A stretch of 64,000 bases of DNA, from contig NC_134025.1 of the NCBI RefSeq assembly GCF_964204645.1, positions 22,412,001-22,476,000 on the forward strand. Reading direction: 5' to 3'. Position 1 is the first letter of the stretch. Every line of letters starts with the position of its first letter. The DNA is from Tubulanus polymorphus (lineage: Eukaryota; Nemertea; Palaeonemertea; Tubulaniformes; Tubulanidae). Both the position numbers and the translations under genes were made by a program. Under the pieces are notes generated by a model. That model worked only from the letters and a program-made list of their open reading frames with translations. It did no database searches and was not told where the DNA came from. Shown here piece by piece: positions 38,401-44,200 of the stretch.

Positions 38401-40465
38401 TTTTCAGTATTTTTAGAGTAATATGGACATGTTTAACAGTCCATATTTTAGGCTAATCGAAAAATCTGATAATACAATAGCCGCAAGAAAATTCAGATAG
38501 TGGTGGCACCACAACTATTGACTACTGCTTGCCGAATTCACAAATGCTTCGTAAAGCCTATTTGTTTACTTACTGCCTTTTAATGTCTAACACAAGGATT
38601 AAGCAACCAACTAGGCTAAACAAGCTTTCTAAGAGAAATCTCCTTAGACATCATTATTTCAGGCATATAGTGATTGACAGCAAATCAACACGGTCGATGA
38701 TCTTAATAAATGTGTAGAACGAAACTAAACTAACCATGAGTACCGGTACTTTCTTTTCTCTTGCCCTCTCGATCTCTCTCTTTTACTAGTTTATTTATGT
38801 ATTCCATTGAATCAGCCGGCGTACCAGTCCATCGGTGACTGTCTCGATTATCCAGCACGGAGTTACGCGAGCTACATTCAACCGGAGGAGTCATACCCGA
38901 CCGTGCCAGGTCCATTGTAGTCATCTCGATACCTTCCGAAGTTTCTCTGAAATTGGAGTGAGATCATATTATGTATGAATTGCTGTTTCTTTTCCAGATC
39001 TGTCAGTGAATGTGTTTGGTCCAGACAAATCCTGTGCAACAGAAGATACAAAAACAAATCTTGAGGGACCTTCCAGATTATAGGTAAACCAATTACTAGA
39101 CTCAGGTGCATGAGCATGGAATATCTTGGATATGCTGACAAATGTACATGTATATTCTCCTAAGCCTAAAATGCTTCAATAAATTGTAAAATAGATATCA
39201 AGTCGATGGTTCATTCATAATGCACAAATTTTCTGCTCATTTTAAGATCTATCTTTGTGGTGTGTACTCCTATATTCAAGCAAAATACACCAAAAAGCAA
39301 GCAAGTAGCTGATATTAGGTACTGGCTTATTCATCGAACAAGTTTATACGAAGGGTTATAGTGTGTGTACTCAATCCCTAGAACAGAAACGGGGTTACTG
39401 ACAGGAGCGAGTTTTACAATAAACCCTTAACAGTTTTCAGAATTTTGCACGGTTAATGAAAGGCAGATAAAGGTTTCAATTGTCTCTGCTTTCCATTTTC
39501 CTTTAGTTTTAAATAACTGCACAAAAGTCAAGTTTTTCAGTTATAAAAATTCCACCTACACGGAGCAAGCAATGTTCATTAGATGTCAAACACAATAGGC
39601 CTAACAGCACAGCAAGTACATACGTACAAAACTCTATGAGAATAAGTGTATTGGACTTATGTACACCGGAAATCTTTAAAGGGTTAAGGTGGATTTAAAA
39701 CTATTTACTCAAATTCAAATGAATAGCGAAAAGAATTCAGATGTGGAACATACCCATGAATATCAGACTTGATTGCTCCGCTGCTTGTCTTAACACTTTT
39801 ATCGTCGGACTTGTCGGCTTCGTCGTCATTATTACTGGACTCTTCGATGACCTCGCTCGTATCGAACAAATGATGCAATTTAAAGTTGATCGTTTTCAAC
39901 AGAATGAACACCACACTGATCGTTACGCAATACACAGTCCACACAACTGTACTCGGAGGTAATGTCTGCCAAATATGAAAAATAGGAAAAGATCTTAGAA
40001 TTTGTTCAATTTGCACCATCTGAACCCAAATGCCCAGCCCCAGATGCCAGCCTCAAACCTTTATGCTAATTACAGCCTACCCTTTTCTGCCATATCATGA
40101 TGCATAACCAACTTCTATACCCTGAACCCTTATTTTCCACTGGACGAAAAAGCGGAAAAATACATCTGTCAGTTTGTACGATTATCCTGACATATAGCCT
40201 AGGTCCGCAGTCAGAATAGCCACTCCTTTGTAAATAATGCCTTGCCTAAAACAGCAGTCAGACGTTTATTGCCACAAAATATACTAACAATATGGGCGGT
40301 AGAGATTCTTACCAGGTACAATACGAACGGAAAGAGCAACAAGAACAGCCACAAATAGAGATGGAGGGTGTTGCAGAATATGCTTTGATGCGGATCGTAG
40401 AACCAGCCACCGGACAAGGACGCCCATAGGCCTTGTCTGATAATCTCCAGGGCGTGGGACACCAT
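17452..40465 (-). CDS. PCNX: Pecanex multi-pass membrane protein, complete coding region
   Basis: 39 coding exons in transcript order: 40465-40313, 39965-39754, 38946-38735, 38236-38141, 37754-37692, 37397-37243, 36647-35201, 34558-34355, 33711-33568, 32312-32259, 31434-31281, 30828-30641, 29220-29106, 28974-28924, 27707-27375, 26824-26671, 26557-26525, 26150-25979, 25905-25795, 25698-25607, 25423-25157, 24948-24850, 24521-24365, 24279-24144, 23918-23741, 23651-23543, 23433-23304, 22729-22455, 22353-22294, 21887-21694, 21368-21138, 20594-20488, 20389-20242, 19999-19848, 19520-19442, 19354-19080, 18793-18642, 18446-18256, 17733-17452. Phase closes at every junction: 7365 nt, 2454 aa (human PCNX1 is about 2340). 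Pecanex is an ER-associated membrane protein required for Notch signalling in Drosophila. Residues 1-75 carry GGWFYDPHQ and two membrane segments. Residues about 75-1180 are Ser-, Pro- and charge-rich, including a 1447-nt exon. Residues about 1180-1740 are hydrophobic segments ([33 protein letters not shown]). Residues about 1740-2250 are the Pecanex_C domain ([46 protein letters not shown]). A Ser/Thr linker and a conserved last exon follow. Confidence 0.97.
17869..18218. mobile_element. Foldback element with tRNA-Ser-like ends, copy 1 (PCNX last intron)
   Basis: Both ends carry the same segment in opposite orientation. The right end reads GCCATCAGGTTCGAATCC then GGGGGATGGATC; the left end is its reverse complement. 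GGTTCGAATCC matches the tRNA B-box. An inner inverted pair (CTACATGCGCAG / CTGCGCATGTAC) and an internal CCAATCAG on each arm extend the palindrome. A sister copy is at 47060-47338 and a solo end at 9802-9838. It lies in the intron between exon 38 (18256) and exon 39 (17733). No coding capacity. Confidence 0.8.
19575..19708. repeat. Internally deleted copy of the CCCTTTCAGTGCG (piggyBac-like) family
   Basis: In reverse orientation it matches the right portion and terminal sequence of the element at 29574-29851. Shared pieces are ATTCAACACA..GTGTGGAATT, AATTAGTCAGC and the end CAGTGCGTCTACAC-AACCCTTT. The central part of the family is missing. It sits in a PCNX intron just upstream of the exon at 19442-19520. 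Confidence 0.65.
20709..21115. mobile_element. piggyBac-like MITE (TTAA-flanked) in PCNX intron
   Basis: TTAA (20705-20708) followed by CTCTTTGCCTGCC, and GGCAGGCAAAGAG followed by TT and TTAA (21116-21119), form inverted ends with a TTAA duplication. This is the hallmark of piggyBac insertions. No ORF is present. The right end stops about 18 bases from the donor site of the PCNX exon ending at 21138, so almost the entire 5' end of that intron is transposon. Confidence 0.75.
21966..22229. mobile_element. Inverted-repeat element with CTGATGA...GAAAC motif
   Basis: Ends TAAATGAAGAAGTCTCACAA and TTGCGGGACTTCTTCATTTA are inverted repeats extended by ATTCGAAT. Near the right end, at about 22133-22170, lies CTGATGATGGC, a short hairpin (GGCT/AGCT), then GAAACGTTGCGG. 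That order resembles the conserved core of hammerhead ribozymes found in Penelope-like retroelements, but stems I and III pair poorly here. Related layouts occur at 54197-54368 and 55051-55190. The element is in the PCNX intron between exons at 22294-22353 and 21694-21887. Confidence 0.6.
26256..26434. repeat. Long imperfect hairpin in PCNX intron
   Basis: Two arms of about 75 bases pair with few mismatches: AATCCCAC..GTTGAATGACT..AAAATACTAGAAATATTTC..GTGGTTC.TACCACC against its reverse complement. The loop is about 30 bases. It lies in the intron between exons 26150-25979 and 26557-26525, so it would be transcribed into a long double-stranded stem in PCNX pre-mRNA. It is probably a foldback transposon; no target-site duplication was resolved. 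Confidence 0.75.
27035..27298. repeat. Dispersed repeat, CAGGGTGGCCAC family, diverged copy
   Basis: It contains repeated motifs such as AATTCCCTGA, TTTTCCAGG, GCAAAATTCGTCAAATTCC and a right end resembling CAGTGACCACCC. These match the better-preserved element at 33048-33481. The left terminal repeat is not recognisable. It is located in the PCNX intron between exons 26824-26671 and 27707-27375. Confidence 0.6.
29440..30075. repeat. Diverged copy of the CAGGGTCCCTAC element, interrupted by another MITE
   Basis: It is homologous to the intact element at 36798-37220. Shared blocks include CAGATCAGT.ATTCCTGG, GTGTCTG..ACTTTCATATCCTTA, AACCGCCTAAT..GGTGAG and AAGGAGCCTG. The copy is split by the 278-bp insertion at 29574-29851. 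Its terminal repeats are degraded. Confidence 0.65.
29574..29851. mobile_element. piggyBac-like MITE nested in an older repeat
   Basis: It begins CCCTTTCAGTGCGTCTACAC and ends CACGGAAAGGG. It is followed by TTAA (29852-29855) and preceded by TCAA, a one-base decay of TTAA. Comparison with the uninterrupted repeat at 36798-37220 shows the empty site, confirming insertion after the host repeat. Internal GTACACCGC/GCGGTGTA palindromes are present. No ORF. An internally deleted relative lies at 19575-19708. Confidence 0.75.
33048..33481. mobile_element. CAGGGTGGCCAC-ended non-autonomous element, PCNX intron
   Basis: The termini CAGGGTGGCCACT and AGTGGCCACCCTG are perfect inverted repeats. The interior is a characteristic series of TTCCCTGA/GTTTTCC motifs. 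It is interrupted at 33287-33424 by a second transposon. Diverged relatives are at 27035-27298, 55205-55450 and 56344-56580. No exact target-site duplication is visible. It lies in the long PCNX intron between exons 33711-33568 and 32312-32259. Confidence 0.75.
33287..33424. mobile_element. GGGCC-ended Harbinger-like MITE nested in another element
   Basis: Its ends are GGGCCGCTTGCAAAGTC and GACTGTGCAACTGGCCC, and the interior is built of TTAAGACCAGTCTTAAG-type palindromes. It is flanked by the 3-bp direct repeat CTG (33284-33286 and 33425-33427). The uninserted sequence CCCTGATTC exists elsewhere in the host repeat, at about 33208. GGGCC termini with a 3-bp duplication suggest PIF/Harbinger (inference). 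Two further copies lie at 61880-62022 and 62025-62156. Confidence 0.75.
34710..34957. mobile_element. Second copy of the CAGTG element (inverted, shortened)
   Basis: Compared with 12934-13329, this copy runs in reverse. It starts GTGCTCACCATATGCTGGGA, carries GCTGCTGAAG.AGCAAGGCTTTCGATCC, GGTAGGGGCAG and GGGGTGGCCGCC, and ends TTGTGGAGAAGACTG. The interior is shorter and the large perfect hairpin is not kept. It lies in a PCNX intron between the 1447-nt exon and the exon at 34355-34558. Confidence 0.65.
36798..37220. mobile_element. CAGGGTCCCTAC-ended MITE with 5-bp duplication
   Basis: The ends CAGGGTCCCTAC and GTAGTGACCCTG are inverted repeats with one mismatch. They are flanked by direct repeats TAACA (36793-36797 and 37221-37225). 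It spans 423 bp and has no ORF. It nearly fills the PCNX intron between exons 37397-37243 and 36647-35201, with its right end 22 bases from the upstream exon's donor site. An older, interrupted copy is at 29440-30075. Confidence 0.8.

Positions 40466-44200: not shown

What the first reader, a model, noticed from the sequence alone, without database searches (positions are those of the whole stretch)
40313..42010. PCNX and MLK are head-to-head, and the pairing may be an ancient bilaterian linkage
Pecanex and a mixed-lineage kinase start 818 bp apart on opposite strands. From memory, human has the same neighbours three times: PCNX1-MAP3K9 (14q24), PCNX2-MAP3K21 (1q42) and PCNX3-MAP3K11 (11q13), also divergently arranged. 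Retention of one divergent pair here and in three human paralogous blocks would mean the pair predates the vertebrate genome duplications, perhaps because the promoter is shared.
Basis: partly seen in the sequence, partly recalled or inferred. Interest (0 to 1): 0.7.

Follow-up and report, generated by a model that had tools for sequence, protein, structure and literature searches.

The report
Ancient head-to-head gene pair
Two unrelated genes, pecanex and a mixed-lineage kinase, start back to back from a short shared stretch of DNA in this invertebrate, as their counterparts apparently do in people, so the neighbourhood is probably older than the split between protostomes and vertebrates; interesting but of a kind already known.

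Summary
A pecanex (PCNX) gene on the - strand and a mixed-lineage kinase (MLK) gene on the + strand begin 818 bp apart (40465 and 41284). The genome is from a protostome, probably a lophotrochozoan, judging by its Hox cluster. Five more genes that I recall in the human 14q24/11q13/1q42/19q13 blocks (SIPA1L, DPF, alpha-actinin, MED6, presenilin) all sit on the window's chromosome C1, 12% of the assembly; three Rap-GAP relatives recalled from other human regions do not. That supports common descent of the linkage. The human pairs are recalled; passages put PCNX2 near MAP3K21, and PCNX3 in one locus with MAP3K11, without order. For PCNX1-MAP3K9 I read nothing. New here: the window's only two exact AAAATGGCGGC (YY1-type) motifs lie in the 818-bp gap, back to back, each in the sense of its own gene, 223 bp apart, suggesting a compact two-way promoter. 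Promoter sharing as the reason for retention is unproven: recalled human spacings run from about 1.5 to about 100 kb. No other animal could be compared.

The parts
40313..40465 (-). pecanex (PCNX) coding exon 1, start codon at 40465
   Evidence: ORF and splice donor read in the sequence; no Pfam match for this exon, its family name is recalled; the gene is tied to the family by Pecanex_C exons on the same strand
19079..40465 (-). pecanex gene body; Pecanex_C exon matches at about 19151-20391; exons between were not modelled one by one
   Evidence: Pfam PF05041: 3.6e-42 for 19079-19393, four exon-level matches in this gene
40466..41283 (.). 818-bp gap between the two start codons
   Evidence: CpG observed/expected 1.56 against 1.12 for the window
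40569..40579 (-). AAAATGGCGGC, YY1-type motif in the sense of PCNX; the ATG of the motif is 111 bp upstream of the PCNX start codon
   Evidence: exact match, one of only two in the window; ATG positions
40803..40813 (+). AAAATGGCGGC, YY1-type motif in the sense of MLK; the ATG of the motif is 478 bp upstream of the MLK start codon
   Evidence: exact match, the other of two in the window; ATG positions
40580..40802 (.). inferred two-way core promoter between the two motifs (223 bp)
   Evidence: inference from the motif positions; CpG observed/expected 2.08 at 40600-40799
41284..42010 (+). MLK coding exon 1: SH3 plus first half of the kinase domain
   Evidence: Pfam SH3_1 6.7e-11 and Pkinase 1.1e-26; PDB MAP3K9 6.6e-62
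59600..64000 (+). further MLK exons (DFG/APE part, end of the kinase domain, leucine zipper), boundaries approximate; the likely last coding exon lies just beyond the window at L001:3261-4511
   Evidence: motif reading; no Pfam hit for the three exons scanned (61403-61840 and 62276-62605, L001:3261-4511)

Best explanation
PCNX and MLK form an old divergent neighbour pair inherited from an ancestor that predates the vertebrate genome duplications and, given that this genome is a protostome, probably from the protostome-deuterostome ancestor. Shown here: the divergent pair, a single MLK match, and chromosome-scale linkage with other genes of the same recalled human blocks. Inferred: in this species both genes fire from one compact two-way promoter of about 220 bp, with a YY1-type site close to each start site setting the direction and position of initiation. 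Such a shared promoter would make breakpoints in the gap costly and help to keep the pair together; in vertebrate copies the two promoters have drifted apart while the neighbours stayed.
For: Gene identities and orientation. Protostome: ten homeodomain matches in one stretch of C6, six of them 83-95% identical to the Antp query; nine of the ten were read, with a Lox5-like tail and two UbdA-like tails (motif names recalled). Macrosynteny: SIPA1L (Rap_GAP plus PDZ), DPF, alpha-actinin, MED6, presenilin, all on C1 (32,063,560 of 267,791,593 bases); five of five by chance would be about 0.12^5 = 2.5e-5. Control within the Rap_GAP search: the three loci that read as RAP1GAP, TSC2 and GARNL3 lie on C7, C4, C7. 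Motifs: 2 exact in 818 bp; 0 in the rest of the window; 2 in the 22 loci then held (123,749 bases), both arms of one inverted repeat in L008. A first-order Markov model expects 0.0004 in 818 bp. YY1 in two-way promoters has precedent at Surf1/Surf2 (PMC2670823, passages).
Against: No other animal genome could be compared; human order and spacing are recalled. The motif was noticed by eye when reading the gap, then scanned among 12 patterns; NRF1, ETS, SP1, CRE, E-box and TATA consensus gave nothing at 40300-41400. Another 11-bp inverted repeat of no known meaning exists in the same gap. No AANATGGCGG was found in five loci at or near other genes. No start-site or expression data. DIP2, the gene on the other side of PCNX, is not a recalled human neighbour, and the five block genes lie 1 to 22 Mb away, so little else of the local order survived. 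Large recalled human gaps argue against a promoter that must be shared. Of 7 families probed for block genes, one gave no match and one was not resolved.
Confidence: 0.72

Rival explanations
1. Regulatory entanglement (odds are for the cause of retention and do not exclude old descent): enhancers of one gene lie inside the other or beyond it (a genomic regulatory block), so the neighbours stay together whatever the promoter does. MLK intron 1 of about 17.6 kb could hold such elements.
For: Fits retention in human blocks with large gaps (recalled). Long MLK intron 1. Model described in PMC8851819 (passages).
Against: Not tested: no related animal genome to look for conserved non-coding elements. 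From general knowledge neither gene is a typical developmental transcription-factor target. It does not predict the twin motifs.
Confidence: 0.3
2. Inertia (also a cause of retention): the pair is old but kept by chance because a small gap rarely takes a breakpoint; no functional tie.
For: An 818-bp gap is a small target; many gene pairs exist, so some survive by luck; chromosome-scale linkage is conserved anyway.
Against: The five other block genes are scattered 1-22 Mb away, so local order is well mixed; two of the recalled human gaps are large targets yet unbroken.
Confidence: 0.3
3. Independent or chance juxtaposition in this lineage, unrelated to the human pairs.
For: Compact head-to-head pairs are common (passages).
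Against: With about 2,400 genes on C1 (assumed from about 20,000 in all, not counted), two given genes become divergent neighbours with probability near 2e-4; the shared chromosome-scale linkage fits descent.
Confidence: 0.05

Closest known systems
PDI / RhoGDI microsynteny (PMC5722932; abstract and outline read)
   Same: One old pair of unrelated genes kept as neighbours in three human paralogous copies and, by that abstract, in echinoderms, nematodes and cnidarians
   Different: PDI and RhoGDI face the same way; PCNX and MLK are divergent. Coexpression and binding were tested there, not here
Surf1/Surf2 two-way promoter with YY1 (cited in PMC2670823; passages read)
   Same: Head-to-head genes with a YY1 site in the shared promoter
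   Different: YY1 function was shown there by the cited work; here there are only two motif matches, one per direction
Divergently paired (head-to-head) genes in general (PMC2670823, PMC4089025; abstract starts and passages)
   Same: Opposite strands, presumed start sites under 1 kb apart
   Different: This pair appears retained across protostomes and vertebrates; start sites not mapped
Genomic regulatory blocks with bystander genes (PMC8851819; passages read)
   Same: Unrelated neighbours kept together over long times
   Different: Conserved non-coding elements were not tested here

Membership tests
Divergently paired genes with a two-way promoter | Adjacent genes on opposite strands, 5' ends facing | tested here: met
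Divergently paired genes with a two-way promoter | Start sites under 1,000 bp apart | tested here: inconclusive
   start codons 818 bp apart, so start sites are closer unless a leader exon lies elsewhere; not mapped
Divergently paired genes with a two-way promoter | Both genes transcribed from the gap | not testable with these tools
   no RNA data
Ancient microsyntenic pair | Same neighbours in distant phyla | tested here: inconclusive
   protostome tested directly; human recalled, partly backed by passages without order; no third phylum
Ancient microsyntenic pair | Surrounding chromosome homologous (shared linkage group) | tested here: met
   7 families probed for recalled block genes: 5 gave an assigned gene, all 5 on C1; PF11881 gave no match and PF07885 was not resolved. 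Human positions recalled
YY1-directed promoter | Exact AAAATGGCGGC-type motif in the sense of the gene | tested here: met
   published consensus AANATGGN(C/G) in PMC3491394 (passage)
YY1-directed promoter | Motif at the start site and bound by YY1 | not testable with these tools
   no CAGE or ChIP
Mixed-lineage kinase (MLK1-4) | SH3 followed by an MLK-type kinase domain | tested here: met
Pecanex | Pecanex_C domain | tested here: met
Genomic regulatory block | Conserved non-coding elements of one gene within the other | not tested
   no related animal genome held

The most novel reading that the evidence does not exclude
The PCNX-MLK gap is one two-way promoter, built on a back-to-back pair of YY1 sites, that has been kept since before the protostome-deuterostome split, survives compact in this animal and at human MAP3K11-PCNX3, and was loosened only in the other vertebrate copies; the pecanex membrane protein and the stress kinase would then be obligately co-transcribed partners.
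Probability: 0.15. Interest if true: 0.65.

Novelty: new member of a known kind. Interest (0 to 1): 0.42.

Why it matters
Unrelated gene pairs that stay neighbours for more than half a billion years are natural tests of what holds genomes together. This one is simple: two genes, 818 bp, two motifs, and (from recall) three human copies with different spacing, so the shared-promoter idea can be set directly against inertia and enhancer entanglement. Pecanex function is, to my knowledge, poorly understood, and lasting linkage to a JNK-pathway kinase is a lead.

Tried and rejected
Bacterial-type promoter and terminator scan of the gap: one hit each against 2.6 and 1.0 expected; it does not apply to an animal. 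Rfam scan of the window at gathering thresholds: no match. Pfam SPAR_C (PF11881) to place SIPA1L: no match; the gene was found through Rap_GAP plus PDZ instead. K2P channels (PF07885): 56 exon-level matches, 16 on C1, none typed to the KCNK1/6/7 group, so not counted either way. COX1 to identify the species: no match, so the mitochondrial genome appears not to be in the assembly. Genome size in papers: two papers whose titles are unrelated. Literature for PCNX-MLK linkage: the listings (one search listed 20 of 73 papers, one search found none) show no title or abstract start that describes it; most listed papers were not opened, and two genome-wide studies likely to list such pairs (10.1101/gr.139725.112, 10.1038/nature11696) are not held. 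A transposon origin of the twin motif was considered because L008 carries the same 11-mer in the arms of an inverted repeat (read by eye); rejected because in the gap the identity stops at 11 bp and the gap matches no other part of the window or of the loci fetched. Motif near other genes (five loci: L012, L023-L026, around DIP2, presenilin, MED6 and DPF): no AANATGGCGG; one ATGGCGGC about 1 kb upstream of an ORF that I take for the start of presenilin, and a shorter ATGGCGG once each in L012 and L026.

Full report
What is there. The window is C1:22,412,001-22,476,000 of a 267.8-Mb genome in 77 contigs. PCNX is tied to its family by Pecanex_C (3.6e-42 for the exon at 19079-19393; four exon-level matches in this gene); exon 1 itself has no Pfam match. 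MLK is tied by SH3 plus kinase and by PDB relatives MAP3K9, MLK4 and MLK3. A search with MLK exon 1 gave two matches at E 1e-8 or better: itself, and a 43-bit kinase match of 47% identity at C1:9.12 Mb. One further pecanex-type gene lies at C1:12.05 Mb. MLK intron 1 is about 17.6 kb, and its likely tail exon lies just beyond the window (L001:3261-4511; identified by reading, no Pfam hit). On the other side of PCNX lies a DIP2-like gene on the + strand, named from recall and from AMP-binding matches below Pfam's cut-off.

What animal. No mitochondrial COX1 was found. A typed Antp homeodomain found 31 matches, ten of them in C6:5.318-5.635 Mb, all on the + strand, six at 83-95% identity. Nine of these ten were read (L013-L021); their tails include a Lox5-like KLNGP and two UbdA-like IKELN motifs. 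From recall these are protostome marks, and the set looks lophotrochozoan. One oddity: no innexin was found, although from general knowledge protostomes usually have many; the tool warns that this does not show absence.

Is the linkage old? From memory, human has PCNX1-MAP3K9 (14q24), PCNX2-MAP3K21 (1q42) and PCNX3-MAP3K11 (11q13), all divergent, about 100, 32 and 1.5 kb apart, in blocks that also hold SIPA1L, DPF, ACTN, presenilin and others, with 19q13 as the fourth block. Papers read in passages support part of this: PCNX2, MAP3K21 and KCNK1 near the same 1q42 variants (PMC11892930); PCNX3, MAP3K11, SIPA1 and RELA in one row for a locus at chromosome 11, 65.39 Mb (PMC7320185); PCNX3 and MAP3K11 in one row for a chromosome-11 locus (PMC9434310); SIPA1L2, MAP3K21 and PCNX2 named together among long genes in selected regions of the rabbit (PMC11939179). 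None states order or orientation, and none was read for PCNX1-MAP3K9.

I then asked whether this chromosome is the counterpart of those blocks. Seven families were probed for block genes, each chosen from recall of the human map before its result was seen. Five gave an assigned gene, all on C1: SIPA1L at 26.81 Mb (Rap_GAP and PDZ in one locus), DPF at 23.49 Mb, alpha-actinin at 4.50 and 4.53 Mb, MED6 at 0.68 Mb, presenilin at 3.26 Mb. PF11881 gave nothing, and PF07885, with 16 of 56 exon-level matches on C1, could not be resolved to a subgroup. C1 is 12.0% of the assembly, so five of five by chance is about 2.5e-5; this takes genes as spread by length, and the human positions are recalled. The Rap_GAP search serves as a control: its 13 matches fall in five loci; those that read as SIPA1L and RALGAPA (recalled on human chr14) are on C1, and those that read as RAP1GAP, TSC2 and GARNL3 are on C7, C4 and C7. 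Apart from SIPA1L these names come from reading the sequence; the GARNL3-like locus gave only a CNH match below the cut-off, the one TSC2-like ORF scanned gave no family, and the RALGAPA-like locus was not scanned. The chromosome is thus very likely homologous, while local order is otherwise scattered.

The gap. The 11-mer AAAATGGCGGC occurs exactly twice in the 64-kb window on both strands, at 40569-40579 (-) and 40803-40813 (+), both in the gap and each in the sense of its own gene. With one mismatch allowed there are 5 matches against 1.09 expected from shuffles, none of 100 shuffles reaching 5. A first-order Markov model expects 0.0004 exact copies in 818 bp. Among the 22 loci then held (123,749 bases) the only two exact copies lie in the arms of one inverted-repeat element in L008. 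The motif fits the published YY1 consensus AANATGGN(C/G), and YY1 sites near start sites tended to activate while those over translation starts tended to repress (PMC3491394, passages). Here the motif ATGs lie 111 and 478 bp upstream of the start codons, so they belong, by inference, to the start-site class. The predicted start sites are then about 220 bp apart. CpG is not depleted in the gap (1.56 against 1.12 for the window). The motif was noticed on reading the gap and then scanned as four of 12 patterns; of the other eight, NRF1, ETS, TATA, SP1, CRE and E-box consensus had no match at 40300-41400, CCAAT had one and GCGCGC one palindromic site. So the small probability is indicative only; a chance 11-bp inverted repeat of another sequence is present too, and a weak look at five loci at or near other genes found no AANATGGCGG. 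The MLK leader would hold several short upstream frames, perhaps reduced by an intron (donor-like 40964, acceptor-like end 41120).

Reading. The best account is descent of a divergent pair from an ancestor before the vertebrate duplications and probably before the protostome-deuterostome split, with a compact two-way promoter in this animal. That the promoter is the reason for retention is open: the recalled human gaps include one near 100 kb. Enhancer entanglement and inertia remain rivals for the cause of retention. It is a new member of a known kind; the closest case is PDI/RhoGDI (PMC5722932, abstract and outline), which has the same three-copy human pattern. The listings (20 of 73 shown) show no paper describing the PCNX-MLK pair, but genome-wide lists that may hold it were not available.

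Noticed in passing
G000, whole assembly: Innexin family PF00876 gave no match (2 first-look candidates) although the Hox cluster marks the animal as a protostome; the tool warns that this does not show absence.
   Followed up: no
G000:C6:5318228-5634747: A compact Hox cluster of ten homeodomain matches, all on the + strand, nine of them read, with Lox5-, Lox4- and Lox2-like members (names recalled).
   Followed up: partly
L009 and L010 (C1:4.503 and 4.529 Mb): Two nearly identical alpha-actinin C-terminal exons about 25.7 kb apart, a recent tandem copy or duplicated alternative exons.
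   Followed up: no
L008:3765-5479: A repeat with inverted arms of roughly 550 bp (by eye) whose outer ends carry AAAATGGCGGC.
   Followed up: partly
L011 (C1:12.05 Mb): A second pecanex-type gene on the same chromosome; from recall, human PCNX4 also shares chromosome 14 with PCNX1.
   Followed up: no
42011-59600: MLK intron 1 is about 17.6 kb, far longer than the gap, and only 3% covered by repeats that recur in the window or the fetched loci.
   Followed up: partly
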